Below, one piece after another: positions 8,348-34,183 of a stretch of DNA of 64,000 nt. The DNA comes from an uncultured Bacteroidales bacterium (lineage in GTDB: Bacteria > Bacteroidota > Bacteroidia > Bacteroidales > FEN-979), in assembly GCA_903903985.1 (NCBI GenBank), contig CAIVAT010000018.1, positions 1 through 64,000 on the forward strand. The letters run 5' to 3'. Both the position numbers and the translations under genes were made by a program. The notes under the pieces are model-generated. The model made no database searches, was not told where the DNA came from, and saw only the letters and a list, made by a program, of their open reading frames with translations. The first letter of the stretch is position 1. Each line of letters starts with the position of its first letter.

Positions 8348-8353
8348 GGGCTG

Positions 8354-9640: not shown

Positions 9641-9660
9641 ATTTCAAGTTTAACTGATTT

Positions 9661-10791
9661 TCACAGTCCGAAACAATAGACCTTTCCATCCTGCGCCCCG
9701 ACAACGATCATTTTCGCAGTGACTGCCGGCGTGCTGAAAATGGCGCTTCCAATTTCATATTCCCAGCTTTCAATGCCCGTATCGATCTGCAATGCATGGA
9801 TCCTCCCATCTCCCGATGCCGCAATGACGAAATTCCCTGCAATGACCGGTGAAGCATCCACCTTCCCAAGGGTCTTGAATTTCCAGACAAGTTTTCCGCT
9901 GGTAGCATCATAACAATAAATATAATGATTTTGGGAACCGGTGATCACTTTGCCGGATCCAACAGCGGGGGAAGCGAGAAATGGACCTCCTCCCTCGGTT
10001 TCCCAAACGATCTTTTTCTTATGGAGATCAAAACAATAGAATTTACCATCGTAATTGCCAAAAAATGCTTTGTCGCCAAGAATGGCGGCCGATGCGGGAA
10101 TGTAGGTCCCAATGTCAATCTTACCGGTCGCTTTCCCGTCGTTCGTGCTGACAAGGTGTAAAAATCCGTCGCACCCCCCAAAAACAGCAAGTTTCCCTCC
10201 AATGGCCGTGGAACCGTTGATAAAATTTTCTGATTCATATTTCCACAACGCTTTGCCGCTCGCCGCATCCACGCAATGCAGTTTGAAATCATAGCTTCCC
10301 ACGAGGATGCTTGGCTGTTTTGTCTTTGGGTTCAGTGTCCAGTTTGCTGAACCCAGGATCTGTCCATCCGTGGCATACTTCCATCGAAGGGTCCCTTTTG
10401 CGGCATCCAGGGCAAATAAAATCCCTTCGGTCGAACCGGCATAAACCGTGTTGTTCAGGATGAGCGGGGGAGCTTCCACGGCTGTGCCGGTATTGAATTT
10501 CCACTTCAGGGTACCTGTGGTACTGATCGCATAAATGAAGCCATCATTGGACCCGGTGTATATTGTCCCGTCACAGATAACTGCCGATGATTTGATCGCA
10601 TCGCCGGTTTTAAAAGTCCAGAGAAGCCTGAACGGTGGTTTTATCACAACCGGTGCATTGCCGGTTAACTGCGCATCGCCGCGGAAGGAGGGCCAGCAGC
10701 CGGCACTTTTGACCTGGGCACGCAGGCCTGCCAAACCCGGGATGCAGGTAAGCAACAATAGCGTTAACCATTTACATGTAAGCTTACTCAT
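9661..10791 (-). CDS. Secreted PQQ-like beta-propeller protein
   Basis: About 376 residues with a Sec signal peptide (hydrophobic LTLLLLTCIPGLAGL, then RAQ). The mature part is made of repeated blades of the form A-x-x-G-T-x-x-W-x-x, for example DAAKGTLRWKYATDG, DAASGKALWKYESEN and DATSGKLVWKFKT, as in PQQ_2/BamB-like propellers. No CxxCH heme motif is present, and nothing shows that it binds PQQ. The start at 10791 was chosen because it gives an ATGA overlap with the upstream gene; an ATG two codons earlier (10797) is possible. It is translationally coupled to the NuoEF/flavoprotein pair, so a periplasmic partner or sensor role linked to that redox pair is inferred. Confidence 0.85.
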   Translation of the reverse strand: MSKLTCKWLTLLLLTCIPGLAGLRAQVKSAGCWPSFRGDAQLTGNAPVVIKPPFRLLWTFKTGDAIKSSAVICDGTIYTGSNDGFIYAISTTGTLKWKFNTGTAVEAPPLILNNTVYAGSTEGILFALDAAKGTLRWKYATDGQILGSANWTLNPKTKQPSILVGSYDFKLHCVDAASGKALWKYESENFINGSTAIGGKLAVFGGCDGFLHLVSTNDGKATGKIDIGTYIPASAAILGDKAFFGNYDGKFYCFDLHKKKIVWETEGGGPFLASPAVGSGKVITGSQNHYIYCYDATSGKLVWKFKTLGKVDASPVIAGNFVIAASGDGRIHALQIDTGIESWEYEIGSAIFSTPAVTAKMIVVGAQDGKVYCFGL

Positions 10792-12380
10792 CGCCATTTT
10801 CTTTCTTCCAGGTCTTTAAATGCCAGTGCGCCGGTGGGACATGCCTCCACACATTCCCGTGCTGTAATTGTAAGCGCTTCCCTGGTAGTCTTACTGAACG
10901 GAACCGTGATGCGAACGTCAAACCCTCTGCCTGCAAAGGTAAGGCCAATCGATTCGCCATGTCTTTGCGTGATTTCAACACATAAGCCGCACCGGATGCA
11001 TTTTTCGGTTTCATACACGACGGCCTCATGCTGTATTGATCTGGTAATGTATTTCCGCTCCTCACCGGCGAAACGCTTACGGTTGGCATCGTATTCATCT
11101 GCATACAGCCTGAGTTTGCATGTTAGCGGTTTCCGGCAATCGCAATGGAGACAACGCTGAGCCTCATGCACCGCTTCTTCCCGCGTAAATCCTGCAAGGA
11201 TCCCTTCCGCCGGCTCCGCCCGCCGGCCAGGGATGCTCTCCTTCATGTATTCATTCCACTCGGGTTCAAATAAATGACCAGTTATTGAAACGGATTTATG
11301 CTTGAACAGGCTATCCCGTTGTTCAACGGAACCACCGAGATAGATCCCCACTTGTTTTGCCGCCATTTTACCCTGTGCCACGGAATGGACTGCCATTTTT
11401 TGTTCCCGGATGATGCTCCCACAGGCAAAAACTCCGGGGATGCTCGTTGTGAAATCACGCCTGTGAACGAATGAACCATGCTCGTCCGGTTGGATTCCGA
11501 AAATGGCTGAAAGATTTGAACCCAGATTTCCGGCAGCTAAAATTACAGCATGATAATTGGGCAGGATTGAATGTTGAAAAAAATCTTTTGTAACCATTAC
11601 CCCCAGGTGCAATTCAGCACCCATATTTTGGATAAGTCCAATTTCGGCATCAAGCATTTCCTTTGGCATTCGGTCTTCCGGAATATCATACCTCAGTGCT
11701 CCGCCGGCCTTTTCGTGTTGATCGAACAGCGTACACGAATGCCCTGACCGGAGCAGATAAAAGGCGGCAGACAACCCTGCCGGGCCGGTACCGATGATGG
11801 CGATTTTTTTTCCGCTGGTTTTGGACCGATCAGCCTGGTGGAAGTTGTCATCACCGGCATGCTGTGCTGCCGAGCGTTTTAATAGGCAGATGGAAACTGC
11901 CTGGTCCATGGGTTTCCGTTTGCATGCCTTTTCGCATGGAGCCGGGCAAATATATCCCAAAACGAGCGGCAGGGCAATTTCCTGCCTGACGATTTGCAGG
12001 GCTTCGTTAAAATTACCTTTACCAATAAGCCTATTCATCAACGGGATATCCATAAACGCCGGACAGGATAACCGGCAAGGGGCTTCACAATCACCTGCAT
12101 GGTCGCTGAGCAGTAATTCGAGTGCTTCCTGCCGGGCTTCCTTTACCTCTTCGGAACCCGTGATGATGTTCATTCCTTCTGAAACCGGCAAGGCACAGGA
12201 AGGCACCAGGTGGTCACGGTCAAGATCCTTAACCAGGCAAACCATGCAGGAAGGGTGGTTTGAAAATCCCGGGTGGAAGCACATCGAAGGGATGGCAATG
12301 CCAAGGATGGCGGCAGCCTCCATGACGGAAATTCCTTCCTGCACCTCAACGGGGATATGATCGATGGTTATGTTTATCAT
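10788..12380 (-). CDS. Fe-S flavoprotein: NuoG-like [2Fe-2S] domain, GltD-like FAD domain, NuoG-like ferredoxin end
   Basis: 530 residues. The N-terminal ferredoxin domain has Cys34, Cys45, Cys48 and Cys62, the spacing of the NuoG/hydrogenase [2Fe-2S] site. Cys98/102/106 and 145/149/153 match the Fe-S helical domain of GltD/NfnB. FAD binding is marked by GTGPAGL (about 197-203). The C-terminus (Cys461/464/467 and CVEACPTGAL near 510-519) matches the extra [4Fe-4S] part of NuoG-like proteins. Between LAAG (281-284) and GVFACGS (316-322) only about 30 residues remain, whereas GltD and NfnB carry a complete NAD(P)H-binding domain there. One base separates it from the NuoE-NuoF fusion, with which it probably forms a soluble complex resembling Stn-type transhydrogenases (inferred). 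Its electron acceptor may not be NADP+. Confidence 0.8.
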   Translation of the reverse strand: MINITIDHIPVEVQEGISVMEAAAILGIAIPSMCFHPGFSNHPSCMVCLVKDLDRDHLVPSCALPVSEGMNIITGSEEVKEARQEALELLLSDHAGDCEAPCRLSCPAFMDIPLMNRLIGKGNFNEALQIVRQEIALPLVLGYICPAPCEKACKRKPMDQAVSICLLKRSAAQHAGDDNFHQADRSKTSGKKIAIIGTGPAGLSAAFYLLRSGHSCTLFDQHEKAGGALRYDIPEDRMPKEMLDAEIGLIQNMGAELHLGVMVTKDFFQHSILPNYHAVILAAGNLGSNLSAIFGIQPDEHGSFVHRRDFTTSIPGVFACGSIIREQKMAVHSVAQGKMAAKQVGIYLGGSVEQRDSLFKHKSVSITGHLFEPEWNEYMKESIPGRRAEPAEGILAGFTREEAVHEAQRCLHCDCRKPLTCKLRLYADEYDANRKRFAGEERKYITRSIQHEAVVYETEKCIRCGLCVEITQRHGESIGLTFAGRGFDVRITVPFSKTTREALTITARECVEACPTGALAFKDLEERKWR

Positions 12381-12381: not shown

Positions 12382-14736
12382 CTAATGGATCAGGATGGCA
12401 TCCACCGGGCATATTTGCCTGCAAATGTCACATTTTATGCATTTATCCGTATCAATGGCGTGTTTTTCATACGGCCGGAAGGCGATGGCATCCGACGGGC
12501 ATCGCTGGGCACACTTGGTACATCCGATACAGTCATCCGTAACCCGGTATTCAATGAGTGGAATACATTTCCCAGCCGGGCACCGGCCATCCAGATGGGC
12601 CTCATACTCTTCGCGGAAATAGTGGATGGTGGTGAGCACGGGATTCGGAGCCGTTTTTCCAAGGCCGCAAAGGCTCCCCCTGGCCGTGCTCCATGCAAGG
12701 TGCTCCAGTTTCGTCAGATCTGCGTGTGCTGCTTCTCCCTTGCGGATTTTTTCAAGTATTTCCAGCATGCGCCTTGTGCCGATCCTGCAAAATGTGCATT
12801 TCCCGCAGGATTGGTTTTGAGTGAATGAGAGAAAATAGTGAGCGATATCCACCATGCAATCGGTGTCGTCAAGCACGATCAGCCCACCTGAACCCATCAT
12901 GGTCCCAGCTTGTTTCAGCGCTTCAAAATCGACTGACATATCCGCCATGGAGGCAGGCAAACATCCGCCGGATGGGCCACCGATCTGAACAGCCTTGAAT
13001 ATCCTGTCGCCGGCAATGCCTCCTCCGATTTCCTCCACAATTTGCCGGATGGTAATTCCCATCGGAACTTCTATCAGGCCGCCGCGTTTCACTTTCCCTG
13101 CCAGGGCGAATACTTTTGTTCCTTTGCTGCCCGGGGTCCCGATTTTTGAAAAGGCTGCTGCACCGTGATGAATGATCCATGGCACCAGGGATAATGTTTC
13201 GGTGTTGTTGATCAGGGTAGGTTGATCCCGCAAGCCTTTTACAACAGGGTAGGGTGGCCGCATCCGCGGAAGGCCCCGTTTCCCTTCAACGGAAGCGATG
13301 AGCGCGGTTTCCTCCCCGCAGACAAATGCCCCGGCGCCTCCGAAAATCCGGACATCAAAAGTGAATCCCGAACCGAGGATGGATGGGCCAATGATTCCCT
13401 TTTCCCTGCAAAGCCTGATGGCCTCGCCGATCCGTGTTACCGCCAGCGGGTATTCTGCACGGATGTAAAAAATGCCATGAGATGCACCGGCAGCATACCC
13501 TGCGATCAACATTCCCTCAATGATACGGAATGGATACGATTCAAGCAGCATGCGGTCCATAAAAGCACCCGGATCGCCTTCGTCGCCGTTGCAGATCACA
13601 AATTTCTCTTCAGCATGCTGGTCTTTTACCAGCTGCCATTTTCGGCCGGTCGGAAAACCTGCCCCTCCACGACCGCGCAATCCGCTCCGGCTGATCTCAT
13701 CCACCACCTGTTGCGGAGTCATTTGCTGCAGGCATTTTTGCAGGGATGTAAATCCTCCCGATTGCATGTACCCATGCATATCCAGTGGGTTGGTAACGCC
13801 CCTGTTCTCCGTGGCAATGTTTTCCTGGGGCCCTAAAAATTTCGATAAGGGGGTATCCCGCTGCTCACCAAAATATTTCCGGAATGACTTGGGAGTTCCT
13901 TCTGTCAGCAGGGTTTCAAAAACACTGTACAAACCGGTTCTGAACCGGTTAACAAAGCCTTCGGGCTTAAAATGGGCCAGCAACACCTCCCTGACTTCTT
14001 CGGGCTTAATTTTAGCATAATATACCGGGCGCTCTCCCGGCTTGATAATTTCCATGATGGGAACCTGGTTGCATATCCCCACACATCCGACCTGCTGAAC
14101 ATCTACCCTGATCTTTGCCAGGGCCAGTGTTTTTTCCAGTTCCGCTTTCACCTCTGAGCTGCCGCTTGCTACGCAACAGGATCCCAGCCCGATGCGGATT
14201 TCCCCTTGTGTTTTTGATTGAAGTTCCTGAAATGAGGAAGCACGAGCGATGTCATTTCTATTCTTTGTAAGAAAATCATGCAGGATTTCTCCCACTTTTT
14301 CCGGTACCACGTGGCCATATGTGATTTCATCCACCTTGACAACGGGAGCAAGTGTGCAGCAGCCAAGACAGGCGATTTTCTCGAGGGTAAAAATCAGCGA
14401 GGCATCCGTATCTTCTCCATCCTCCAGTTTCAGTTCACGCCTGAACGCTTCATACACAAATAAAGCCCCTTTCACATGACAGGCGGTGCCGGTGCATACC
14501 CTGATCCGGTGTTTGCCTGCCGGCTGGTGCCGGAACTGGGTGTAAAATGTCGAAATCCCGGAGATACGGGCAGGGGTGATATCGGTGATTTCGCAAACCT
14601 GCTGAAGGGCCGCCTCCGGAAGGTAATTGAATTCATGCTGAAGATCCTGTAATATCGGAATTACGGCATCAGCGGTTTTCCCATGACGGGATACCACCTG
14701 GTTGACTGTATCGGTAATCCGTCGGTTTTTTTCCAA
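12382..14736 (-). CDS. NuoE-NuoF fusion with extra ferredoxin domains (NADH-oxidising subunit)
   Basis: 784 residues in five parts. A NuoE-like [2Fe-2S] domain has Cys81/86 and 123/127. A second thioredoxin-like [2Fe-2S] domain has Cys187/188 and 218/222. The NuoF NADH/FMN core shows GRGGAG (355-360), GDEGDPG (384-390) and GGAGAFVCGEETAL. The NuoF [4Fe-4S] site is Cys644/647/650/690. Two C-terminal [4Fe-4S] ferredoxin motifs are at Cys736-746 and 766-776. This is the layout of HydB/HndC-type subunits of bifurcating hydrogenases and transhydrogenases with NuoE fused on. It is soluble, so probably cytoplasmic. The in-frame start is TTG at 14736; no ATG lies between the upstream stop and the conserved region. 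It starts four bases after the MG2-like gene. No hydrogenase catalytic subunit is nearby. Confidence 0.9.
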   Translation of the reverse strand: MEKNRRITDTVNQVVSRHGKTADAVIPILQDLQHEFNYLPEAALQQVCEITDITPARISGISTFYTQFRHQPAGKHRIRVCTGTACHVKGALFVYEAFRRELKLEDGEDTDASLIFTLEKIACLGCCTLAPVVKVDEITYGHVVPEKVGEILHDFLTKNRNDIARASSFQELQSKTQGEIRIGLGSCCVASGSSEVKAELEKTLALAKIRVDVQQVGCVGICNQVPIMEIIKPGERPVYYAKIKPEEVREVLLAHFKPEGFVNRFRTGLYSVFETLLTEGTPKSFRKYFGEQRDTPLSKFLGPQENIATENRGVTNPLDMHGYMQSGGFTSLQKCLQQMTPQQVVDEISRSGLRGRGGAGFPTGRKWQLVKDQHAEEKFVICNGDEGDPGAFMDRMLLESYPFRIIEGMLIAGYAAGASHGIFYIRAEYPLAVTRIGEAIRLCREKGIIGPSILGSGFTFDVRIFGGAGAFVCGEETALIASVEGKRGLPRMRPPYPVVKGLRDQPTLINNTETLSLVPWIIHHGAAAFSKIGTPGSKGTKVFALAGKVKRGGLIEVPMGITIRQIVEEIGGGIAGDRIFKAVQIGGPSGGCLPASMADMSVDFEALKQAGTMMGSGGLIVLDDTDCMVDIAHYFLSFTQNQSCGKCTFCRIGTRRMLEILEKIRKGEAAHADLTKLEHLAWSTARGSLCGLGKTAPNPVLTTIHYFREEYEAHLDGRCPAGKCIPLIEYRVTDDCIGCTKCAQRCPSDAIAFRPYEKHAIDTDKCIKCDICRQICPVDAILIH

Positions 14737-16432: not shown

Positions 16433-16433
16433 G

Positions 16434-20346: not shown

Positions 20347-20350
20347 CGCT

Positions 20351-21521: not shown

Positions 21522-21558
21522 TGAAGGGGATGAGGCAATTAAAACAAGCTGAACTATA

Positions 21559-22127: not shown

Positions 22128-22184
22128 ATCTGGATCATAAGGAGCGCCCATTGCTGAAATTTAACTGTATGATCAGATAGAGAT

Positions 22185-23905: not shown

Positions 23906-25762
23906 TTACTTCCCGGCACAAAATAAATTTTTATCCCCCCTGATAACAATCAACCCGTCGGCAAATGCCGGAGTGCAGGACGATCCTTCGCCGAGCTGGG
24001 GCTGGCTGACAGGGGTAAACTTCTGATCATCGTTAAAAATATGCATCACGCCCTTCTTGTCAAGCAGGTAAATTTTTCCTTCCGCCAGTACCGGCGAGGC
24101 AAAGACGGGCGTCTCCAATTCCTGGACCCAGTATTTGGCCCCTGTTTTTGCATCATAGCACACCACCGCCCCGTAACTGGTTACCAGGTACAGGTGTTTG
24201 CCGGTGGCCAGCGGACTGGGTATGTCAGAAAGGTATTCGGTATCCTCCCACAGCAGTTTCGGAGGGTCTCCGAGTTCTATCGCTGCCAGTTTTGAAAAAT
24301 CATTGACCGAGTAAACAATATTCCCGGCAAAGGCAACAGATGGCCCCACTTCACCGGTAATACAGGCGAAATTCCAGAGCTCCTTCCCGGTCGCCGGATC
24401 ATAAGAGGCAACCATGGGATCCGCCGCCAGGACCAGCTCCGTTCTTTTCCCGGTTTGAATGATCACCGGCGAGGCCCAGGAAATCTTGACGCTGCGGCTG
24501 GTTTTCCATATCACCTCCCCTGTTTTTCCCGACAGCGCCATCACGCTGCCTGAGCCACGCTGGTCGTACTGGACGATGAGCAGGTCATGGTACATGATGA
24601 GTGAAGAAGCGTGCCCGTAATGATTCATCGGCAACCCGAGATTTTTTGCCCATACCTGGTTCCCGGCAAAATCGAGTGCAATGAGGTCCCCGTTGGCAAA
24701 AACGGCATACACCCGCCGTCCGTCCGTAGTCATCGTTGGTGCGCTGAAACCGGTCTCTTTGATGATTTTGGGCTCCTGGGAAGGAGTGCCGGGGATTTTT
24801 TCTACGGCCTTCTGCCAGAGGATCTTCCCGGTGTGAAGATCGATGCAGTAGACCATCCGGATGGTCTGGCTGGCGCCGGTAAGAAAAACCCGGTCGTTCC
24901 AGATAATCGGGGAGTTGTACCCGGGCAGCGGGATCTCTGTTTTCCATTTAATGTTCTTACCGCTTTTCCCATCCCAGTTTACGGGGATGTTTTTCTGCCG
25001 GGCAATCCCGTTTCCCCCGGGGCCCCTGAATGACGGAAAATTACGGGAAATCTCCTGCAAGGAAGGGTACCCGTCCATGTTTGCACGTTCTGTTGCGGCG
25101 ATCGTGTCTTTCTTCACCAGGGAATCCCCATTGCCGGTGTTTTGCAATTCTGCATTCCGGCTTTCCTGCATTCCAGCCTCCCGGCCTTCCGGCCTTCCGG
25201 CATGATCCTGCTCATTTATGGCTTCCTGAAGATTCCTTCCGAGTTCCTGGTGAGTAAGGATCAGTATTGCCATGGAAATGACCACGATCGAAATTCCGGT
25301 ATAACCCACCCAGATCCTGTTGATCTTCAGGGTATGCCACCGATCGGTTTTAGCCCCGGAAGGAACAGCAGGTATTGTTTTTTGCATGAGCCCGGCTGCT
25401 GTAACACAAATCACCACAACAAGAAGGCTGAAAAAAAGAAGATAACCTCCCATTCTGACCTGCCATTGGTTGGTGAAGAAGGCCCTGCGGGCAAGAAGGT
25501 CGATTTCCCTGATCTCCTGGCGGAGCTGCTCATCTGCCGGATCGGCGTGCATCCGGTCAACCAGGACCTTCATTGTCTTTGTATTCAGCGGATCAGCACG
25601 TTTGACCTGGATATAATTGATGATGATCAGCACGCACAGGATCATTGCAAAGATACCTGCAATAATTGCCACGTTCCGTAGCAGTGACAACCCGCGGGGT
25701 GTCCCTGCAATCGCCACATTGCGACCATAACGGTTCAGGTCCTGTGAATTTAATTTGGTCAT
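23906..25762 (-). CDS. Membrane-anchored PQQ-like beta-propeller protein
   Basis: 618 residues. Three hydrophobic helices lie in the first 170 residues (about 29-48, 104-125 and 152-168). Then comes a linker rich in Glu, Arg and Asn (about 175-230), and a C-terminal PQQ_2-like propeller beginning FPSFRGPGGNGIA with blades such as DLHTGKILWQKA, SGKTGEVIWKTS and DPATGKELWNF. No CxxCH heme site is present. The propeller is probably periplasmic. Its ATG overlaps the NapH-like gene stop by four bases. The linker is encoded by a GC-rich repeat (25138-25203). Possible roles are a docking or redox-sensing partner of the ferredoxin module (inferred). It is the last gene of the operon. Confidence 0.8.
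   Translation of the reverse strand: MTKLNSQDLNRYGRNVAIAGTPRGLSLLRNVAIIAGIFAMILCVLIIINYIQVKRADPLNTKTMKVLVDRMHADPADEQLRQEIREIDLLARRAFFTNQWQVRMGGYLLFFSLLVVVICVTAAGLMQKTIPAVPSGAKTDRWHTLKINRIWVGYTGISIVVISMAILILTHQELGRNLQEAINEQDHAGRPEGREAGMQESRNAELQNTGNGDSLVKKDTIAATERANMDGYPSLQEISRNFPSFRGPGGNGIARQKNIPVNWDGKSGKNIKWKTEIPLPGYNSPIIWNDRVFLTGASQTIRMVYCIDLHTGKILWQKAVEKIPGTPSQEPKIIKETGFSAPTMTTDGRRVYAVFANGDLIALDFAGNQVWAKNLGLPMNHYGHASSLIMYHDLLIVQYDQRGSGSVMALSGKTGEVIWKTSRSVKISWASPVIIQTGKRTELVLAADPMVASYDPATGKELWNFACITGEVGPSVAFAGNIVYSVNDFSKLAAIELGDPPKLLWEDTEYLSDIPSPLATGKHLYLVTSYGAVVCYDAKTGAKYWVQELETPVFASPVLAEGKIYLLDKKGVMHIFNDDQKFTPVSQPQLGEGSSCTPAFADGLIVIRGDKNLFCAGK
25138..25203. repeat. Imperfect GCCGGAAG-type tandem repeat inside a coding linker
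   Basis: The coding strand carries several imperfect copies of GCCGGAAG and GGAATGCAG words. They are translated as a hydrophilic linker containing HAGRPEGREAGMQESRNAEL. The stretch is unlike the surrounding sequence. Confidence 0.6.
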
Positions 25763-27090
25763 ATGGCAGGAAGGTTATCATCCCCCATTCTCACGGGGCA
25801 GTAATCCACACACCTGGTGCAACTTAAACACGTGCCCTTGTTTGGGAGGTAATCTTTTTGGTATTTTGTTACCATGCGGTAGGCGAGGGTAATCCCGAAA
25901 ACAAGCCCAAGGAAGCAACCCAGGATCCAGCTGCCGGTATAAAATTGTTTCAGTACCCGGGATGCCTCGGCATAAACCTGGGCCACGGGTTTCCCGGATG
26001 ATTTGAACGCAGTAACTTCAATGGTCTCTGTTTGATTTACGGATGAGGCCGGTTCCACCAGTGTTTTGGCCAGCCTGACTTTCCCATTCACCGATGCCAG
26101 TGTTTCATGTACAGTCGATAAGGTCCAGCCTCCGAGGACAGTAAAAAACGGGACAAGAAGAGAGATCAGGATCAGTTTCCGGATGGTGGTTCCCCTGCTT
26201 TCCGGGTTGGTGCCGGTAACGGGCAGATCGATGGCATCATAAGGGCATGAATCTTCACACAAGCGGCATTGAATGCAGGTTGATGGAGTGATGGTGATGT
26301 GTTTCCATGAAAACCGGCTGATCCAGTTGAGTAAAACGCCGTAAGGGCAAAGGAACCGGCAGTAAGGACGGGCAATAAAAATGCCCGAGACCAGCAGCGT
26401 CCCGGCAAAAATGAACATGGCAAACGAAGCGTTAAACCTGAAAATCCCAACAAACGGGTCATAGCGGCAGATGATGAAATCGCTACCGGTGGCCGCGTAA
26501 AGGATGGCCAGTCCAAGGTAAATATATGGAATCAGGCCCAAAACAGCGTTTAAACGTGTTCCAAGTTTCTGGGGTTTGAAAGCAACCAGGTCCTGTATGG
26601 CCCCAAATGGGCAAACACCCGCACAAAATGTCCGGCCAAAGAAAAGGGTGAAGATCAGCGGGAGAATGAAGAAACCAATCACTGCAAGTGGTGCCGGGTA
26701 TGAGCTGTTGAAAAGTGCCAGGGTCACGTTCTGGATCGCACCGATGGAGCAGATGCATCCCTGACGGTAAAACCCAAAATAGGCAAGTGAAACGACGGAT
26801 GCCGCGAAAACACCCAGGCGCGAACGTTTCTTCACAACCAGCCAGGATATAACTGACAGCATGATTACAAGAACAATGACATCTGCGATTTGCAGCATTT
26901 CAGCGCGTGCTGCCGGCTGCATTGTTTCGGGCTGAACATACCCTGATTCAAATTCGGGTTTCGGGAAACGTTGCACGGCAAGTGCATCCAGGAATTGGAT
27001 GGAGAAAAACAACATCAAACACAGAAATACTATCCTTTTACTTTTTTTACCGTGAAGGCGCGAAGACGCAAAATGAGTAAATCCAATCAT
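25759..27090 (-). CDS. NapH/NosR-like membrane polyferredoxin
   Basis: 443 residues with about six membrane helices. It has the paired CxxxCP motifs of the NapH/NosR/CcoG group (Cys156/160 and Cys244/248). One [4Fe-4S] ferredoxin site is at Cys272/275/278/282 and a second at the C-terminus (Cys421/424/427/431). An additional Cys112/Cys114 pair sits in RQGCICSIGAIQ. Family members pass electrons from quinol to periplasmic acceptors. A periplasmic loop (about 325-380) carries no FMN-attachment motif that I can see. The gene follows the exported ferredoxin by five bases and overlaps the propeller gene by four. The first residues (HFASSRLHGKKSK) are encoded by a dispersed repeat, so the start could be further in. 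Confidence 0.85.
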   Translation of the reverse strand: MIGFTHFASSRLHGKKSKRIVFLCLMLFFSIQFLDALAVQRFPKPEFESGYVQPETMQPAARAEMLQIADVIVLVIMLSVISWLVVKKRSRLGVFAASVVSLAYFGFYRQGCICSIGAIQNVTLALFNSSYPAPLAVIGFFILPLIFTLFFGRTFCAGVCPFGAIQDLVAFKPQKLGTRLNAVLGLIPYIYLGLAILYAATGSDFIICRYDPFVGIFRFNASFAMFIFAGTLLVSGIFIARPYCRFLCPYGVLLNWISRFSWKHITITPSTCIQCRLCEDSCPYDAIDLPVTGTNPESRGTTIRKLILISLLVPFFTVLGGWTLSTVHETLASVNGKVRLAKTLVEPASSVNQTETIEVTAFKSSGKPVAQVYAEASRVLKQFYTGSWILGCFLGLVFGITLAYRMVTKYQKDYLPNKGTCLSCTRCVDYCPVRMGDDNLPAI

Positions 27091-27116
27091 AATTTTTAGC
27101 GTCTTGGCGTCTTTGC
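27049..27116. repeat. Inverted dispersed repeat across the ferredoxin/polyferredoxin junction
   Basis: GGCGCGAAGACGCAAA near 27056-27071 and GCGTCTTGGCGTCTTTGC at 27099-27116 are inverse-type copies of the same word. They overlap the end of one gene (tail NLTAKTPRR) and the start of the next (HFASSRLHGKK). Similar words are dispersed in many Bacteroidota genomes. Confidence 0.6.
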
Positions 27117-27698
27117 AGTGAGATTTTTTTCGTCGCCAACCTGCCGCAGCAAGTATGGCTTACTTGCAGGTACCCGGCTATATGCATCTGCCGGGCAATT
27201 CCTGGCGATGGAACACTGGTTGCAATTGACACACCGGTTATGTCGTACCTGCAGTTGCAGTGAACCGTTCCCGAAGGCGCCGCAACCCTTCACACATTTT
27301 CCGCAACCGATGCACAAAGGTTCATCAACCGTATATTCAAAAAACGGATCCTCAATGAATTTCCTTTTCAGCGCACTGGTAGGGCATAGCTGGTTTTCAG
27401 CAGCCGTGGTGAGCGTTTTGGTCTCGGGTTTGAAGTAACCGCCACATAAATCACAGTAACCGCACATGGCATATACATGCACGCATTTCACCGCAGAAGG
27501 AGTCAAAACGCAACTGGTTGCGCACCGGCCGCATTGCACGCATTTGGCCGGATCGAGCTGCCATACCAGGTTGCCTGCAACGGATTGTTTTAAAACAAGG
27601 GCGGCAACTCCACCCAATCCGAGGAGAACGGAAGCCCGCACGCCTGCCCCCAGAAACTTCCGCCGGTTGATTTTATGGTTATTTTCGGGTTCTTCCAT
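27096..27698 (-). CDS. Tat-exported ferredoxin with four [4Fe-4S] motifs, NapG-like
   Basis: 200 residues from ATG 27698. The longer frame adds 42 residues that overlap the neighbour and lack a signal. The N-terminus has a twin-arginine signal (KINRRKFLGAGV followed by a hydrophobic stretch). Cys-rich motifs follow at 53/56/59/63, 72-85 with 105, 129/132/135/139 and 156/159/162/168, suggesting four clusters as in NapG. Expected location is the periplasmic side of the inner membrane, accepting electrons from the NapH-like neighbour. No NapA, NapB or other reductase is encoded nearby. It overlaps the small upstream gene by 20 bases. The last residues (LTAKTPRR) derive from a dispersed repeat. 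Confidence 0.85.
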   Translation of the reverse strand: MEEPENNHKINRRKFLGAGVRASVLLGLGGVAALVLKQSVAGNLVWQLDPAKCVQCGRCATSCVLTPSAVKCVHVYAMCGYCDLCGGYFKPETKTLTTAAENQLCPTSALKRKFIEDPFFEYTVDEPLCIGCGKCVKGCGAFGNGSLQLQVRHNRCVNCNQCSIARNCPADAYSRVPASKPYLLRQVGDEKNLTAKTPRR

Positions 27699-27939
27699 CT
27701 TCTGCAATGGATTGATTCTCACTTGCTTTGCTGAGGCGGAACTGGTCTGCTTCAGGCAATTGGCAATGGTCCGTATTATTGCAATTGCCGCAGGAAAAGT
27801 TCTGATGGCACCCCTGGCTTTCATCCCATCGACGGATTAACACGCCGCTAAACAATGCAATGGATCCAAGGATGCCCGTCCTGATCAGCAAATTTATAAA
27901 TTGCCTCCTGTTATGTACGGTAATTTTCTTCCTGTTCAT
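27679..27939 (-). CDS. Small Tat-like Cys-rich membrane protein
   Basis: 86 residues. It begins MNRKKITVHNRRQFINLL, a twin-arginine-like motif, followed by one hydrophobic helix (about 18-35). A four-Cys cluster follows (Cys44, Cys50, Cys53, Cys59; spacing C-x5-C-x2-C-x5-C), then a polar tail. I do not recognise a family. It overlaps the NHL gene by four bases (ATGA) and the ferredoxin gene by 20, so it is surely part of the operon. The four cysteines could bind a metal or cluster; this is inference. Confidence 0.65.
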   Translation of the reverse strand: MNRKKITVHNRRQFINLLIRTGILGSIALFSGVLIRRWDESQGCHQNFSCGNCNNTDHCQLPEADQFRLSKASENQSIAEDGRTRK

Positions 27940-28916
27940 TTGCCGGTCACCTGTTTTTTCAAGGTAAAAATCCTGACCTGGTTCTTTTCCGGATCAAGTA
28001 CAAGGATACGGTTTTTTGAATCAACGGCAAGATCGAGGCCCCTTGTTCCTTCGACAAATGAGCCTGGTCCGGCGACCATGCATTTGAATACGCCGTCGGG
28101 TCCGTAGATTTTGATCCGCTCGATCCCTTTTTCGCTGGTGACAAACGAACCGTCGGAAAATATGGCGAAGTTCGATGGGTTGCAGCATCCGCAGAATCCA
28201 TCCATGGACATGCCCGCTTCTCCCCATGAACTCATTATATCCCCGTCCCCGTTATATTGCTCGAAGTGATGCCGGCCGGGATTCACGACCCAGAGTTCAC
28301 CCTTGCGGCCGATGCCCAGGTCGAAATAGGGGCTTGGCACCACAAACCCAGGAATCTTCCTTGAAGGATCTTTTTCCCCGATTTTTTTATGAAATGCTCC
28401 GGTCACATCATATTGATATACAACCTTGTTGCCAGCATCGGCGATATAGACATCCTTGCCTTCGGCAGCGATGGAGGTAATGATCGCATCCTCCCCGCAG
28501 GTATTCCATGTTTTCAGCTGCCGGCCTTTCTGATCGTAAATTTCGACATGATCCTGCATGCCAAGGTATATTTGTCCGGCCTGGTCCACATGAATGCAAT
28601 TGGCTGTTCCCCCGATGGGAATCGCTGCTTCACGTTTCCCGGCAGGATCATAGATTTCAAAGCCATTTTCACCCGCGATGAAAATATGATCCGATTTATC
28701 CAGGGCAATTCCATGGATGGCGGGCAGCCCTGTGCTGAAATGCTGCTCTTCGGCAAAAAGGATCTGCGTGGAGTCTCCCGACCTGAGTGATTTCAGATCA
28801 TAGGCATAAGGGTTTTCATTGCCTGCAGGCTTGTTGAAAAACAAATCCCAGGCAATAAATACAATGACCAGCAGCAAGAGTGCCAGTGCTCCGAAAATGA
28901 TGATTTTTCGCTTCAT
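27936..28916 (-). CDS. Membrane-anchored NHL-repeat beta-propeller
   Basis: 326 residues. An N-terminal anchor (IIIFGALALLLLVIVFIAW) is followed by NHL-type blades: GIALDKSDHIFIAGENGFEIYD, then HVDQAGQIYLGMQDHVEIYD and LAVDSKNRILVLDPEKNQVRIF. A Cys-rich turn GFCGCCNPSNF lies around residue 240. NHL propellers usually mediate binding rather than catalysis. It lies one base after the anchored PQQ-like propeller and overlaps the small Cys-rich gene by four bases. A periplasmic scaffold for the ferredoxin module is inferred; substrate binding is an alternative. Confidence 0.8.
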   Translation of the reverse strand: MKRKIIIFGALALLLLVIVFIAWDLFFNKPAGNENPYAYDLKSLRSGDSTQILFAEEQHFSTGLPAIHGIALDKSDHIFIAGENGFEIYDPAGKREAAIPIGGTANCIHVDQAGQIYLGMQDHVEIYDQKGRQLKTWNTCGEDAIITSIAAEGKDVYIADAGNKVVYQYDVTGAFHKKIGEKDPSRKIPGFVVPSPYFDLGIGRKGELWVVNPGRHHFEQYNGDGDIMSSWGEAGMSMDGFCGCCNPSNFAIFSDGSFVTSEKGIERIKIYGPDGVFKCMVAGPGSFVEGTRGLDLAVDSKNRILVLDPEKNQVRIFTLKKQVTGK

Positions 28917-28917
28917 G

Positions 28918-30348
28918 TTACTGCGCTTTTATATCCAGGCACACCAGTTGTTTTGAATCCCGCATCAGCAGGAACCCGCCGGTGATGGCAACCGGCCCCC
29001 ACGAATCCTGCCCGTCGATGATCCGGCTTTTCCCGAGCACCATAAACCGCGACGAAGATACCCTGGCAATGGTCATCTCTCCGTCATCATTCAGGATAAA
29101 GAACTTTCCATCGGCCACGATGTATGGACCCAGGCCGAAGCGGTCGGTTTTTCCACTGCTGACGACTGCATTTCTGCAATCCCCGGGCCGGTACCCAACG
29201 AACTGGTTTCGCAACCCTCCGGCATCTTTGGGAAGTATCCCATAGAGAACCCCATCGTAAAAAACCGGCGTTTGCTGCTCTGATGCCAGCCCTTCCTGTG
29301 GTTTGAATTTTTGCTGAACCCTGACGGCATATTTCCCGTTTTGAGCGGTCACCTGCAATACCGCAGACCCCGCACCGTAACCGGCAGTCAGGAAAATCTT
29401 CCCGTCATCCAGCATCACCGGGGAGGGTGCCACAACCGCAGGCGCAAACTCCGTTGTTTCCCATAACACCTTTCCCCTGTCGGAACCGCTCGCTGAAATA
29501 CCGCAAACACCTCCAACAGCAAAGTATACAAACATTTTTTTCCCCTGGAGGGTCATCGGCATGACTGAGGAATGTGACATTTTCCACTCTTTTGGATTGG
29601 GCGTTTCCCAAAGCACCTTTCCTGTGTTGCAATCGATGGCGACAAGAAGTGCTTTGCCGCCTGTGGCAATAATCGCTGTGTCATCGTCGAGCAAAGGGCA
29701 TTGCCCGGTGTACCAGAAAGGGATTTCCGTATTATACTTCCCGACAAGGTCGAGCCCCCAGATAAAATCTCCATTGCTGCGTTTAACGCACATTACCTGG
29801 CATTTCGGGCCGATGGTCAGTACGAATTTTTCATTCACGGCCGGGATCGTTCTCGACAGCCCATGGTTGCGTTTGAGATGGACCTGGTATCCCCGCCACC
29901 AGAGTTCTTCCCCGGTTGACAGTAAAAAACAACGCAACTGGTCCGATTTTTCCCCTTCATTGTAATCGAGCAGGTAAACCTTCCCGTCGTAAACGGCCGG
30001 TGCAGCATGCCCCTCTCCCAGCATCTTTTTCCATAGAATGCGCGGCCCGCCTTTTCCCCAGTTTTCTATCAGCCTGACTTGCTCTTTGTTGATGTTGTCA
30101 TAACCCGGCCCCCTGAAATTTGTCCAGCGTGTGCCAGGAACATCCTGTGAAACCCTGAAGAATTTAAACCCGGATCCGATCCTGACAGGTTTCACCGGCA
30201 CCGCCACGCCTTTTTTTCTGTTATCCATTCCCGGAACAGACGTGGTGAATTTTTGGACTGGATCATACAAGAGCCACCATGCAAGCAGCCCTATGGCTGA
30301 CAGGATGAAAATTAGAAGGAAATATCCTGCAAGATACTTCTTTAACAT
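28918..30348 (-). CDS. Membrane-anchored PQQ-like beta-propeller protein
   Basis: 476 residues with an N-terminal helix (YFLLIFILSAIGLLAWWLL) and no cleavage site, so the protein is probably a periplasmic propeller held by a signal anchor. The propeller begins TRWTNFRGPGYDNINKE and continues with blades such as LSTGEELWWRG, RSNGDFIWGLD and DCNTGKVLWETPN. Two nearby cysteines (CQVMC) sit in one blade. It is separated from the next gene by one base but from the upstream secreted propeller by about 130 bases, so it probably starts the core operon 30348-23906. I could not place a good -7 box before it. Confidence 0.8.
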   Translation of the reverse strand: MLKKYLAGYFLLIFILSAIGLLAWWLLYDPVQKFTTSVPGMDNRKKGVAVPVKPVRIGSGFKFFRVSQDVPGTRWTNFRGPGYDNINKEQVRLIENWGKGGPRILWKKMLGEGHAAPAVYDGKVYLLDYNEGEKSDQLRCFLLSTGEELWWRGYQVHLKRNHGLSRTIPAVNEKFVLTIGPKCQVMCVKRSNGDFIWGLDLVGKYNTEIPFWYTGQCPLLDDDTAIIATGGKALLVAIDCNTGKVLWETPNPKEWKMSHSSVMPMTLQGKKMFVYFAVGGVCGISASGSDRGKVLWETTEFAPAVVAPSPVMLDDGKIFLTAGYGAGSAVLQVTAQNGKYAVRVQQKFKPQEGLASEQQTPVFYDGVLYGILPKDAGGLRNQFVGYRPGDCRNAVVSSGKTDRFGLGPYIVADGKFFILNDDGEMTIARVSSSRFMVLGKSRIIDGQDSWGPVAITGGFLLMRDSKQLVCLDIKAQ

Positions 30349-30481
30349 AGAAAGATCAAGGTTGAAAAGGGACTGCTAATTTACTCGAAAAACAAACAGT
30401 TTGAACAGCCCGCTACGCATTCAAAATACACGAACGCCTGCTTCCCGTTCTCCTGTCCTTCTGCCACCATGTCCCAACCCT

Positions 30482-31699
30482 TTATTCCTTCCTTAGAACA
30501 TCGTAAGCTAAAAGCACCGTTCCGTGCCTGACATACAAAATCCCGTCACTGATCACGGGATGAGCAAAATGTTCCAGTGTTCCCGCCGTGATTTTAAATG
30601 AACTGACAACTTCAAGTTTTCCCTGGTCGGGTTTGATCAGTCCCATCATGCCCTGATCGTTATAGCAATAGAGCCTGCCATCAGCCAGAATGGTTGCACC
30701 GCAATTGAATTTTACCGAATCGGCGATCGTGCCTGTTGCGGCATCAATGCTTTCAAACCTTGCCGGACGATACCTGGAACCATAAAGGTAATCGCCTGAT
30801 TTAACAAAACCTCCCTGAACATTTCCACCCGTGAAATTCCGCCAAACCTCCCTGATCGACTTCCCGTCAGGAGACAATGCCAGTTTTACCATCCCATTGC
30901 CTCCGCGGTCGTTGCAATAAATAAACCCGTCATCGAAGACCGGTGTGTTGCAATGAATGTCATTGGCCCGGTCAAAGGGATGTGACCATAACAACTCACC
31001 CGTTGCAGCATCGACCCCGATGAGCTGGTGGATCATCAGGGTAACAAGTATCTTTTTTCCCTGCAAGGGAATCATCACAGGGGAGCAGTAGGCAGCAGAA
31101 TCGGCCATGGCTTTGGATCTCCAGATAAGTCTTCCATCGAACCTGTTTAAGGCGACCACATTGGTGTCCTTGCCTCCGGGGAAGCAAAACAGGCGATCAT
31201 CGTCAATCAGCAGCGATTCCGTATAACCGAACCTGACGTTGATCCCGTGGAGGTCACTGATCATGTTGACCGACCATTTTTTTTGACCCGTCCGTGAATC
31301 CATGCAGATCACTTCGCCCATACTGGAGCAGTAATAGACCAGGTTGCCGGCAACCGTCGGGGTTGACCGTGCCCCGGGAAAGTTTTCTGTCCATTCTCTT
31401 CCGGTTTCCGTTTTCCAAACCAATTCGCCTTGTTTACTGAATGCAAACAGGTACCCGGTGCTGTCAATTTCACCGGGAATAAAAATGCGATCAGCCGTAA
31501 CGACCGGCGAGGAAAAACCATTGCCAATGCTGTCGATCCTCCAGATCAGCCTTGGACCTTCCGCAGGCCAGTTTGACAGCAGATTTTTTTCATGATAAAC
31601 CCCGTTGCGTTCAGTGCCGCGCCATTGGGCGGTTGTTTGAACATACCCCGAAAGAAAAGGAAAAACCATCAATAAAAGGAGGGTCCAGCATTTTTTCAT
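30482..31699 (-). CDS. Secreted PQQ-like beta-propeller protein, paralog B
   Basis: 405 residues with a Sec signal peptide (WTLLLLMVFPFLSGYVQ). It starts the propeller with QWRGTERNGVYHEKNLLSNW and is clearly paralogous to the next gene upstream: both share FSSPVV/HSSAAV, REWTENFPGARSTP/EEWTESWPGVRSTP, and the closing YVRHG element. No heme or metal motif is visible. It has its own -7 box 32 bases upstream, so it may be transcribed separately from the ferredoxin operon. The function is unknown. Confidence 0.8.
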   Translation of the reverse strand: MKKCWTLLLLMVFPFLSGYVQTTAQWRGTERNGVYHEKNLLSNWPAEGPRLIWRIDSIGNGFSSPVVTADRIFIPGEIDSTGYLFAFSKQGELVWKTETGREWTENFPGARSTPTVAGNLVYYCSSMGEVICMDSRTGQKKWSVNMISDLHGINVRFGYTESLLIDDDRLFCFPGGKDTNVVALNRFDGRLIWRSKAMADSAAYCSPVMIPLQGKKILVTLMIHQLIGVDAATGELLWSHPFDRANDIHCNTPVFDDGFIYCNDRGGNGMVKLALSPDGKSIREVWRNFTGGNVQGGFVKSGDYLYGSRYRPARFESIDAATGTIADSVKFNCGATILADGRLYCYNDQGMMGLIKPDQGKLEVVSSFKITAGTLEHFAHPVISDGILYVRHGTVLLAYDVLRKE

Positions 31700-31730
31700 A
31701 TGGAATAATTTTTGAAGTGATGATCCTTCA

Positions 31731-31738
31731 CAAATATA
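31731..31738 (-). promoter_or_regulatory. -7 box before propeller paralog B
   Basis: On the minus strand this reads TATATTTG, an exact TAnnTTTG match, 32-39 bases before the ATG. The spacing resembles that before paralog A. Confidence 0.5.
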
Positions 31739-31825
31739 AGAAATGGAATTCCCGGGCAGTAAAATTTTTGATAAAAGGCAATCAAATACCGATGAAAGCC
31801 AGGATAAACCCGGAAAGACGGCAGC

Positions 31826-33043
31826 CTAATTCTTCCTGAGATCGTAAACCATCAGCGATGGTCCATGCCTGACATAAAGCCGGCCATTGGCGATAACCAG
31901 GTGAGCCCAATGCTGATCTGCCCCATACGGCACCTTGAATGCACTGATCTTTTTAAAGGAATTGGCAAGCGGTTCCGCAAGGACTATTTCCCCGTTGTCT
32001 CCATATAAATAAAGCAAACCATCGGCATAGATAATGTTCCCTCTTCCCGTGATTTTTTCCGAATACATGTTGGTCCCCGTCTTCCAGTCAAGGCAGTACC
32101 ATGCTTTTCCAGAATCGTCTGATCCGAAAATTTTCCCTTTCACCAATACGACCCCCCCCATTTTGTTGTCGATGTCGGTGTTTCGCCAGACTTCCTCAAC
32201 TGCTCCGCCATCATCGGATACCTTCAGCATGACCCCACCCTTTCCATAACCTGAAACACAGTAGAGATAACCCTCATGAAAAAGCGGCGTATTGGCATGG
32301 ACAGAATATTTGTTGGGCTGATCATGGCTCCATAACAGTTTGCCGTTTTCGGTGTCAATTCCCAGGATGGATTTTGCGGTGTGGGTTACCAGGATATGCT
32401 TTTGCCCCAGCTTTATCAATGCAGGAGATCCGTATGCGCTGGGTTCTCCCTTCCCGCTGCTTTTCCATATCAGCTTCCCGGTATCAGGGTTGAGGGCGAT
32501 TACATTGGCCTCGGTTCCGCCAACGGTACAAAATAGTTTGTTCCCGTCAATTAACAGGTTTTCAGTTACCCCCCATTGGATGTTCGGACCCTGGTAATCT
32601 TTCAGTATATCCACACTCCAGATAAAGGCACCGTCATCCGCATTGCGGCACACCAGTTTTCCAAAACCGCTTAACAAGTAAATCTTTCCGTTTTTGATTA
32701 ACGGGGTACTCCTTACCCCTGGCCAGCTTTCTGTCCATTCTTCGCCATATGGAACTTTCCAGTTCAACTTCCCGGCAAGGTCAAAACAGAACAGGTAGCC
32801 GATGCCCTCCAGCATTCCGGTCGTATACACCCGGTTGCCTGTCACAGCGGCCGAAGAGTGTCCTTCACCCAACCCGTCAAAATGCCAGAGGAGGGCAGGT
32901 CCGGCATCGGGCCAGATTTTCAGCAACCCGGTTTCGTTGTAGATCCCATCACGATCCGGACCACGCCATTGCGCTGTTTCCTGGGCATCCGTGTTTATGC
33001 TGAAAAGGGTCGCCAGACTCAACAATGTCAGAATTTTTTTCAT
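31826..33043 (-). CDS. Secreted PQQ-like beta-propeller protein, paralog A
   Basis: About 405 residues from ATG 33043; codons upstream add no signal peptide. The signal (ILTLLSLATLFSINTDAQ) is followed by QWRGPDRDGIYNETGLLKIW, then blades such as NPDTGKLIWKSSG and DTENGKLLWSHDQ. It ends YVRHGPSLMVYDL. It is a tandem duplicate of the following gene and nearly equal in length. No CxxCH motif or obvious catalytic residues are seen. A clear -7 box lies 29 bases upstream. The SRPBCC gene is divergent. Confidence 0.8.
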   Translation of the reverse strand: MKKILTLLSLATLFSINTDAQETAQWRGPDRDGIYNETGLLKIWPDAGPALLWHFDGLGEGHSSAAVTGNRVYTTGMLEGIGYLFCFDLAGKLNWKVPYGEEWTESWPGVRSTPLIKNGKIYLLSGFGKLVCRNADDGAFIWSVDILKDYQGPNIQWGVTENLLIDGNKLFCTVGGTEANVIALNPDTGKLIWKSSGKGEPSAYGSPALIKLGQKHILVTHTAKSILGIDTENGKLLWSHDQPNKYSVHANTPLFHEGYLYCVSGYGKGGVMLKVSDDGGAVEEVWRNTDIDNKMGGVVLVKGKIFGSDDSGKAWYCLDWKTGTNMYSEKITGRGNIIYADGLLYLYGDNGEIVLAEPLANSFKKISAFKVPYGADQHWAHLVIANGRLYVRHGPSLMVYDLRKN

Positions 33044-33760: not shown

Positions 33761-34183
33761 TTACACGGAGTCTCCAAAGTCGGCATCCGCCGGGGTTACC
33801 GGGGCCAAATCCTGCATCGGTGAATCATTGCTGATTGCGGGACCATCTTCAAAATCTGCTTCTGCCGGGGTGACCGGGGCAAGATTCAACATGTTGATTT
33901 CCATTGACGGAGCTTCATCAGAAAAATCGGCGGTCATCGGAATACACGGTGTTAAGGCAGTCAGATCGAATATGTTTTCATTTGGCTCAGCGGTTTCTTC
34001 AAAAGAGGCTTCCATCGGTGTTTCAGGCATCAGCATTGCAACGGTCCCATCATAAGTGATTTTATCTGTCAGAACCATTGATTCATTGAAGTTGCCGGTG
34101 GCGAATAAAGTGTTAAACTGCAATCCGAGAATTGCAGCAAGTAAATAAATAGATTTCATTGTGATCATATTGGTAGTTTTCAT
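33761..34183 (-). CDS. Small secreted acidic protein with four internal repeats
   Basis: 140 residues. A signal peptide (IYLLAAILGLQFNTLFATG) is followed by four repeats of the form L-x-P-x-T-P-x-x-A-x-F-x-D/E. They lie at about 51-63, 74-90, 99-114 and 126-139; the last two share LAPVTPA. The mature part is strongly acidic. I do not recognise the family, although repeat-bearing secreted peptides of this kind occur in Bacteroidota. Starts at residue 1 or at Met9 are both possible. It has a possible -7 box at 34314-34321, implying a leader of about 130 bases, and no operon partner. Confidence 0.65.
   Translation of the reverse strand: MKTTNMITMKSIYLLAAILGLQFNTLFATGNFNESMVLTDKITYDGTVAMLMPETPMEASFEETAEPNENIFDLTALTPCIPMTADFSDEAPSMEINMLNLAPVTPAEADFEDGPAISNDSPMQDLAPVTPADADFGDSV

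What the first reader, a model, noticed from the sequence alone, without database searches (positions are those of the whole stretch)
23906..33043. Putative electron-transfer system: NapGH-like ferredoxin pair with five beta-propellers and no terminal reductase
Eight minus-strand genes encode two secreted PQQ-like propellers, an anchored PQQ-like propeller, an anchored NHL propeller, a small Tat-like Cys-rich protein, a Tat-exported four-cluster ferredoxin, a NapH/NosR-like polyferredoxin and a three-helix propeller. The last six are coupled by 1-5 base gaps or overlaps. Known NapGH modules serve a reductase (NapAB); here none is present and no product carries CxxCH. I infer a quinol-linked periplasmic redox chain whose acceptor, or sensing target, involves the propellers. 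Propeller function and PQQ binding are not shown.
Basis: partly seen in the sequence, partly recalled or inferred. Interest (0 to 1): 0.72.

Follow-up and report, generated by a model that had tools for sequence, protein, structure and literature searches.

The report
NADH-wired periplasmic propeller electron export cluster
A block of about 14 genes, kept together in many Bacteroidales and related to pieces of known enzymes that handle NADH and iron-sulfur electrons, likely forms a wire that would carry electrons from inside the cell to propeller-shaped proteins outside its inner membrane; what those propellers do is unknown.

Summary
The eight genes are real and as described. They are half of a larger conserved cluster; the other half lies in the same window and was missed: a fused NuoE-NuoF subunit (12382-14736), a NuoG/GltD-like subunit (10788-12380), a sixth propeller, a glycosyltransferase and an ABC exporter (4323-10797), set 9 kb apart here by what looks like an insertion. 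In relatives NuoEF follows gene 8 in 25 of 28 loci with enough sequence, within 200 bases in 17. The short GltD-like subunit occurs in 33 of 35 genomes with the NapH-like gene, 0 of 26 without. This half resembles electron-bifurcating StnABC/NfnABC, but the GltD-like subunit lacks the NADPH domain and the usual FAD aspartate; in a Parabacteroides relative the FAD domain is gone while nearly all iron-sulfur cysteines stay. Best reading: an NADH/ferredoxin-linked transmembrane Fe-S wire ending on propellers. No terminal reductase appeared among the cluster genes scanned; PqqC is in 0 of 61 genomes. Quinol input is unsupported; direction and acceptor are inferred. Labilibaculum manganireducens, an Fe/Mn reducer of unproven route, carries the cluster.

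The parts
31826..33043 (-). g1: PQQ_2/BamB-like propeller with signal-peptide-like start; 1-6 tandem copies of this type seen in relatives
30482..31699 (-). g2: PQQ_2 propeller, second tandem copy (number varies between genomes)
28918..30348 (-). g3: membrane-anchored 8-bladed PQQ-type propeller with 92 residues invariant in 45 sequences (KRNHGxSR, WxTGQC, MSHxS, APSP, AGYG, KD motifs); candidate active or ligand-binding subunit
27936..28916 (-). g4: membrane-anchored NHL propeller with an invariant GCCNP motif (33 sequences)
27679..27939 (-). g5: small RR-motif protein with CX5CX2CX5C; fused to g6 in some relatives
27096..27698 (-). g6: RR-motif four-cluster [4Fe-4S] ferredoxin, NapG-like but below model cut-offs
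25759..27090 (-). g7: NapH/NosR-like membrane polyferredoxin, two CxxxCP motifs and two classical [4Fe-4S] motifs
23906..25762 (-). g8: three-helix membrane anchor with PQQ_2 propeller
12382..14736 (-). NuoEF: fused NuoE + StnB/HydB-like NuoF with C-terminal double ferredoxin (start codon uncertain, TTG at 14736)
10788..12380 (-). Fe-S wire subunit: NuoG-type [2Fe-2S] + GltD-like part without NADPH domain + C-terminal [4Fe-4S] region
9661..10797 (-). bamB2: sixth, BamB-like propeller with signal-peptide-like start
8354..9640 (-). GT4 glycosyltransferase with GTFYCGNCLRD motif, cluster member in 16 of 21 eligible loci
7655..8347 (-). LolD-like ABC ATPase
4323..7658 (-). FtsX-type permease, last gene of the cluster in most of the downstream stretches read

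Best explanation
A conserved cluster of about 14 genes, of which the eight reported are one half, encodes what is predicted to be a transmembrane iron-sulfur wire: a cytosolic NADH/ferredoxin module related to StnABC/NfnABC would pass electrons through a degenerate, NADPH-domain-less GltD/NuoG-type subunit into the NapH-like membrane protein g7, and from there through the likely exported ferredoxin g6 (and g5) towards propeller proteins, with g3 the likely catalytic or ligand-binding end. Shown: gene content, order, co-occurrence, absence of the NADPH domain, absence of the FAD domain in some lineages with nearly all Fe-S cysteines kept, natural g5-g6-g7 fusions. Inferred: that the two halves touch, that electrons run outwards, that g6 is exported and g3 is the terminal protein. 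Unknown: the acceptor, and the roles of the glycosyltransferase and ABC exporter.
For: Synteny: NuoEF downstream of g8 on the same strand in 25 of 28 loci with enough DNA (17 within 200 bases, the farthest 5 kb); the other three genomes hold the GltD-like gene on another contig. In 80 genome-database loci (best 80 of 460; overlapping the first sample) g7 is present in 63 of 64 and NuoEF in 46 of 49 eligible. Co-occurrence 33 of 35 against 0 of 26 at E 1e-60. NuoEF aligns over residues 179-783 with the B subunits of Stn/NfnABC at E 1e-194 to 1e-197. The GltD-like subunit skips about 148 residues of StnC and its kin; 24 of 25 module copies examined have one Rossmann motif and none a second (L067 has neither; two of the 24 are cut by contig ends), while a complete paralogue in L040 has two; its model aligns 254-260 residues over chain spans of about 430-460 of GltD/NfnB proteins (model pLDDT 65). 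Aspartate of the GGD FAD motif: 0 of 21. FAD domain absent in L067, L168 and L172, Fe-S cysteines kept except C165. g5-g6-g7 one frame in L036 and L054.
Against: No experiment. NapH-like proteins are also reported with quinoprotein oxidases, so inward flow is possible (PMC8238504 passages), and the Stn core runs in both directions (PMC10482914 passages). For Fe/Mn reduction in Labilibaculum the authors point to other candidates, a predicted ferric reductase and an NrfHA-type cytochrome (PMC5760507 passages; PMC9765461 passages). Partial clusters exist: L139 and L173 keep g1-g3-g4 and L170 g1-g3-g4-g6 without the rest nearby. One C-terminal [4Fe-4S] cluster seen in StnC has lost most of its cysteines here. 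The co-occurrence test is not corrected for phylogeny. In the window the halves are 9.2 kb apart, so one transcript is unlikely. The propellers have no demonstrated redox cofactor and may be scaffolds.
Confidence: 0.5

Rival explanations
1. Inward flow: the propellers, g3 above all, are periplasmic dehydrogenases of unknown substrate; electrons pass inwards through g6/g7 and the GltD-like wire to the Hyd/Stn-like core, which would split them between NAD+ and ferredoxin.
For: In Stn the GltD-side branch is the electron entry to the bifurcating core (PMC10482914 passages); NapH-like proteins are reported with the quinoprotein ExaA (PMC8238504 passages); g3 is conserved like an enzyme, and a quinoprotein L-sorbose dehydrogenase is among its fold matches.
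Against: No PqqC match in 61 of 61 genomes; no CxxCH in the eight products; the nearest folds include tetrathionate hydrolase, which in A. ferrooxidans needs no cofactor, though quinoid compounds were reported in the Ac-TetH enzyme, and BamB and YxaL, which are not known quinoproteins (recalled); a periplasmic donor reducing enough for ferredoxin would be unusual (general knowledge).
Confidence: 0.25
2. Quinol-linked NapGH-type chain: g7 oxidises menaquinol and g6 passes electrons to the propellers; the NuoEF/GltD genes are merely neighbours.
For: g7 is NapH/NosR-like, and NapH is described as a putative quinone-binding subunit (PMC8238504 passages).
Against: The GltD-like gene co-occurs with g7 across families of the order (33 of 35 against 0 of 26), and NuoEF follows g8 in 25 of 28 eligible loci.
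Confidence: 0.12
3. Envelope maturation or surveillance system: the propellers are BamB-like scaffolds, the glycosyltransferase and FtsX exporter build or move an envelope component, and the redox wire supplies reducing power for its modification.
For: GT4, LolD-like ATPase and FtsX permease belong to the cluster; BamB is among the top fold matches.
Against: The glycosyltransferase is missing from its usual place in L067 (a 34% relative lies after the permease, L074) and in the Parabacteroides cluster L168, and is found in 16 of 21 eligible loci against 25 of 28 for NuoEF; the redox genes are kept more strictly.
Confidence: 0.13

Closest known systems
StnABC / NfnABC electron-bifurcating transhydrogenases (PDB 8oh5, 9bov, 9n5u)
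   Same: StnB-type NuoF with C-terminal double ferredoxin, a NuoE domain, and a third subunit with N-terminal [2Fe-2S], GltD-like Fe-S region and C-terminal [4Fe-4S]
   Different: NADPH-binding domain absent, FAD motif altered or FAD domain absent, no FdhF-like domain (530 against 1172-1178 residues), NuoE fused to NuoF, and linked to a membrane and periplasmic module
NapGH / NosR / MauMN-type membrane ferredoxin modules
   Same: Four-cluster ferredoxin with RR motif plus membrane protein with CxxxCP motifs and [4Fe-4S] sites
   Different: Below NapG/NapH cut-offs, no NapAB/NosZ/MADH found among the cluster genes scanned, no FMN-binding domain found; NADH module instead
Flavinylated NapH-like systems (eLife 2021, PMC8238504)
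   Same: NapH-like protein moving electrons across the membrane to or from an extracytosolic enzyme (passages)
   Different: No FMN_bind domain in the cluster proteins scanned against Pfam (bamB2 and the ATPase were not scanned there)
Tetrathionate hydrolase and BamB (PQQ-type 8-bladed propellers)
   Different: About 15-17% identity; membrane anchor and redox neighbourhood; catalytic residues not compared

Membership tests
NapH (quinol dehydrogenase ferredoxin subunit) | Score above the NapH/MauN or NapH model cut-off | tested here: not met
   66.4 bits against 213.05 (TIGR02163) and 55.6 against 234 (NF007013)
NapH (quinol dehydrogenase ferredoxin subunit) | Paired CxxxCP motifs in the membrane part | tested here: met
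   C156/C160 and C244/C248 invariant in 32 sequences
NapG | Score above the NapG model cut-off | tested here: not met
   14.0 bits against 269 (NF007012)
Nap/Nos/Mau-type system | Terminal enzyme (NapAB, NosZ, MADH) in the cluster | tested here: not met
   Not among the 14 window cluster genes scanned with Pfam and/or NCBIfam; wider neighbourhoods seen only as ORF lists
Flavinylated NapH-like system | FMN_bind domain on g7 or a cluster neighbour | tested here: not met
   Pfam scans of g1-g8, the L035 NuoEF and GltD-like proteins, GT and permease; bamB2 and ATPase not scanned with Pfam
StnABC/NfnABC transhydrogenase | Hyd/Stn-type B subunit with C-terminal double ferredoxin | tested here: met
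   E 1e-194 to 1e-197 over residues 179-783, Cys motifs aligned
StnABC/NfnABC transhydrogenase | NADPH-binding Rossmann domain in the GltD-like part | tested here: not met
StnABC/NfnABC transhydrogenase | Complete Fe-S chain in the GltD/NuoG subunit | tested here: inconclusive
   Cysteines for one [2Fe-2S] and four [4Fe-4S]-type sets are invariant in 21 copies, but one C-terminal cluster aligned in 9bov/8oh5 has lost most cysteines here, much as in 9n5u; three short copies also lose C165 and K168. Which Stn cluster each set equals was not mapped on a structure
StnABC/NfnABC transhydrogenase | Electron bifurcation activity | not testable with these tools
   needs enzymology
PQQ-dependent dehydrogenase (g3) | 8-bladed PQQ-type propeller fold | tested here: met
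PQQ-dependent dehydrogenase (g3) | PQQ synthesis in the genome (PqqC) | tested here: not met
   0 of 61 genomes; none of the 14 control genomes rang, but matches below the cut-off were found in 18 of 247 phylum genomes; PQQ uptake not excluded
PQQ-dependent dehydrogenase (g3) | PQQ and calcium contact residues | not tested
Rnf complex | RnfC above cut-off in the cluster | tested here: not met
   L035 NuoEF 37.5 bits and window NuoEF 45 bits against 245.95

The most novel reading that the evidence does not exclude
A haem-free electron export machine of fermenting Bacteroidales, from Mn-reducing sediment species to gut Parabacteroides: a former bifurcating transhydrogenase whose nucleotide-binding head was stripped away until only an Fe-S wire was left, plugged into a membrane polyferredoxin, so that NADH and ferredoxin electrons are dumped on an extracytosolic acceptor by a new class of propeller reductase.
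Probability: 0.17. Interest if true: 0.88.

Novelty: new variant of a known kind. Interest (0 to 1): 0.62.

Why it matters
If right, it joins two known electron-transfer kinds (Stn/Hyd-type NADH-ferredoxin modules and NapH-type membrane ferredoxins) into one machine that my paper searches did not find described, in bacteria where metal reduction is documented but its route is not proven (Labilibaculum, PMC5760507 passages). The g3 family also includes a protein named Parabacteroides distasonis by its source (P0279), a cultivable gut species, so the function could be tested by simple gene removal.

Tried and rejected
Rejected: in-frame stops in g7 homologues as selenocysteine; the stops shown in g7 alignments lie at the very end of the gene or, in L064, just before its start (the TGA and TAA flagged for G028 and G058 did not reappear there and were not followed). 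Rejected: replacement of Rnf. RnfC above cut-off in 7 of 35 g7-positive and 16 of 26 g7-negative genomes; within the window's own family 1 of 29 against 2 of 8, and all six g7-positive genomes from other families have Rnf. Rejected: replacement of [FeFe] hydrogenase; present in 33 of 35 and 18 of 26. A g6-g7 fusion that I first noted for L064 is an artefact of my ORF extension across a stop; only L036 and L054 hold. PQQ contact residues could not be mapped. The GltD-like model is poor (pLDDT 65), so its fold match is only supporting. g3 has no sequence match in PDB at E 0.01. g3 in broader samples: 44 of 247 order genomes, 2 of 295 class, 1 of 296 phylum with the L067 query, the own genome counted each time, so it is mainly an order-level feature in these samples. 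Paper searches in which I recognised no description of the cluster: (open-licence PMC only; hits judged by title and start of abstract, bar PMC8238504).

Papers: PMC10482914, PMC8238504, PMC5760507, PMC9765461, PMC10859504: passages only. PMC7483475: listing and start of abstract only.
Full report
1. The observation. The eight minus-strand genes at 23906-33043 are there as described. The g6 start should be 27698, giving a 200-residue ferredoxin with an RR motif and 16 invariant cysteines. No product has CxxCH.

2. What was missed. NCBIfam scans of genes further downstream in the same window found a 784-residue NuoE-NuoF fusion (12382-14736), a 530-residue NuoG/GltD-like protein (10788-12380), a BamB-like propeller (9661-10797), a GT4 glycosyltransferase (8354-9640) and a LolD-like ATPase (7655-8347); the permease at 4323-7658 carries FtsX domains. 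In relatives the same genes follow g8, and in most downstream stretches read the run ends with the permease (in L074 a GT-like and a g1-like gene follow it). In the window they are set apart by a TonB receptor/DUF4249/MG2-domain block and further genes (14741-23756).

3. Conservation. g7 is in 35 of 61 genomes (own and 60 relatives). I read 34 loci, all the g7-positive genomes except the own one. With enough DNA: g6 33 of 33, g4 31 of 31, g3 31 of 31, g1-type 27 of 27, NuoEF 25 of 28, GltD-like 22 of 24, bamB2 21 of 24, GT 16 of 21. NuoEF starts within 200 bases of the g8 end in 17 of the 25, the rest 0.5-5 kb away. NuoEF misses are L036, L061 and L063; their genomes hold the GltD-like gene on other contigs. 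A separate scan with g3 found 460 relatives; the best 80 were kept, partly the same genomes. Present in the locus, among those with enough DNA: g4 72 of 73, g6 67 of 68, g7 63 of 64, g8 56 of 57, NuoEF 46 of 49. Named carriers include Labilibaculum manganireducens, Ancylomarina, Marinifilum and Marinilabiliaceae JC017. The g3 family is found in 44 of 247 genomes of the order and 2 of 295 of the class, own genome counted.

4. Co-occurrence. The GltD-like protein is found at E 1e-60 in 33 of the 35 g7-positive genomes, in frames of 336-571 residues; misses are G004 (81% complete) and G059, whose locus L067 has a still shorter copy. None of 26 g7-negative genomes has this short form; the one hit there (G060) lies in a 1239-residue frame, the full-length type, and G046 has a second hit of that type. 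Fisher p 3e-15, without correction for phylogeny.

5. The wire subunit. Its best solved relatives are the A/C subunits of NfnABC and Stn, then NfnB-type chains. The alignment jumps from residue about 290 to about 438 of the Stn/NfnABC chains, where GltD-type proteins bind NADPH (StnC has GltD-like FAD and NADPH sites, PMC10482914 passages). A complete paralogue in L040 has the second Rossmann motif; none of 25 module copies does (24 have one motif, L067 none). In 21 aligned module copies the aspartate of the GGD motif of the FAD site is absent (20 with another residue, one deleted), while the cysteines for one [2Fe-2S] and four [4Fe-4S]-type sets are invariant. One C-terminal cluster of Stn has lost most cysteines here. 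In L067, L168 and L172 the whole FAD domain is gone (323, 327 and 366 residues); the cysteines remain, except C165, lost together with K168. I read this as an oxidoreductase reduced step by step to an Fe-S conductor; that is an inference from sequence.

6. The input. NuoEF aligns across the whole StnB type, with the C-terminal double ferredoxin and a CPxxxC motif. In Stn this core handles NAD(H) and ferredoxin (PMC10482914 passages). So NADH and/or ferredoxin is the likely cytosolic partner, not quinol.

7. The membrane and outer part. g7 keeps two CxxxCP and two [4Fe-4S] motifs invariant in 32 sequences. The g5 motif lies in the same frame as g6 in L036, L053, L054, L055 and L063, and g5-g6-g7 are a single frame in L036 and L054, which supports physical contact. 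A g5-type motif, separate or fused, was found in 21 of 34 loci, so it is not universal as a recognisable sequence.

8. The propellers. g3 is highly conserved: 101 of 476 residues invariant in 32 copies and 92 still invariant in 45. Its model (pLDDT 88.6, pTM 0.85) is a PQQ-type propeller; closest are YxaL, tetrathionate hydrolase and BamB, with a quinoprotein dehydrogenase lower. Tetrathionate hydrolase of A. ferrooxidans needs no cofactor, though quinoid compounds were reported in Ac-TetH (PMC10859504 passages). PqqC is not matched in any of 61 genomes; no control genome rang, but sub-cut-off matches in 18 of 247 phylum genomes show that the search can find distant members. g3 may thus be an enzyme without PQQ, or bind something else.

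9. Gut bacteria. A g3 relative is named Parabacteroides distasonis by its source (P0279, 763 member sequences). I did not see the P. distasonis neighbourhood. G527 matches Parabacteroides sp. PF5-6 by an identical protein and contig length and has the whole cluster except the glycosyltransferase and a recognisable g5. Four of five genomes of its genus carry both g3 and the wire subunit on one contig, about 8-10 kb apart; the fifth has neither.

10. Function. L. manganireducens and its kin reduce Fe(III), and one strain Mn(IV), during glucose fermentation with 2-16% of electrons; the authors name a predicted ferric reductase and an NrfHA-type cytochrome as candidates and ask for further work (PMC5760507 passages; also PMC9765461 passages). 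That fits export but does not show it. Against: those candidates, partial clusters (L139, L170, L173), reversible cores, and NapH-like proteins serving oxidases.

11. Verdict. Ordinary parts, extraordinary assembly: a conserved NADH-module-to-propeller system that the searches listed did not find described. Mechanism confidence 0.5.

Noticed in passing
window 14741-23756: A block with an MG2-domain protein, a DUF4249 protein, a TonB receptor-like protein and further genes separates the two halves of the cluster here; in the loci read where NuoEF was found downstream of g8 the distance is at most 5 kb. Probably a lineage-specific insertion.
   Followed up: partly
window 21633-22073: Short plus-strand ORF that looks like a Y1/IS200-type transposase (label recalled, no profile run); similar ORFs lie between g8 and NuoEF in L101 and L102.
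   Followed up: partly
window 58886-61141: One ORF joins a class-V aminotransferase (cysteine desulfurase-like) to an AIR synthase-related (SelD-like) pair of domains (the SelD and desulfurase readings are recalled).
   Followed up: no
window 33761-34183: Small protein with repeated (L)APVTPADADF-like stretches, a relative of which lies upstream of the cluster in 8 of 34 loci.
   Followed up: no
L040 14414-18000: A NuoEF/GltD-type paralogue with the NADPH-domain motif on the other strand, next to the module in the same genome.
   Followed up: partly
L081 3594-7257: In one genome (G032) a cytochrome-type respiratory gene run (RR-motif protein, large membrane protein, CxxCH protein) lies roughly 10-15 kb upstream of the cluster; not checked in others.
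   Followed up: no
L139, L170, L173: Loci that keep only g1-g3-g4 (plus g6 in L170) without g7 to NuoEF nearby: partial clusters or scattered genes.
   Followed up: partly
L116: Contig labelled Alphaproteobacteria carries the Bacteroidales cluster, g3 at 65% identity: probably a mislabelled bin.
   Followed up: no
G000 to G060: RnfC above cut-off in 16 of 26 g7-negative but 7 of 35 g7-positive genomes, largely a family-level pattern.
   Followed up: partly
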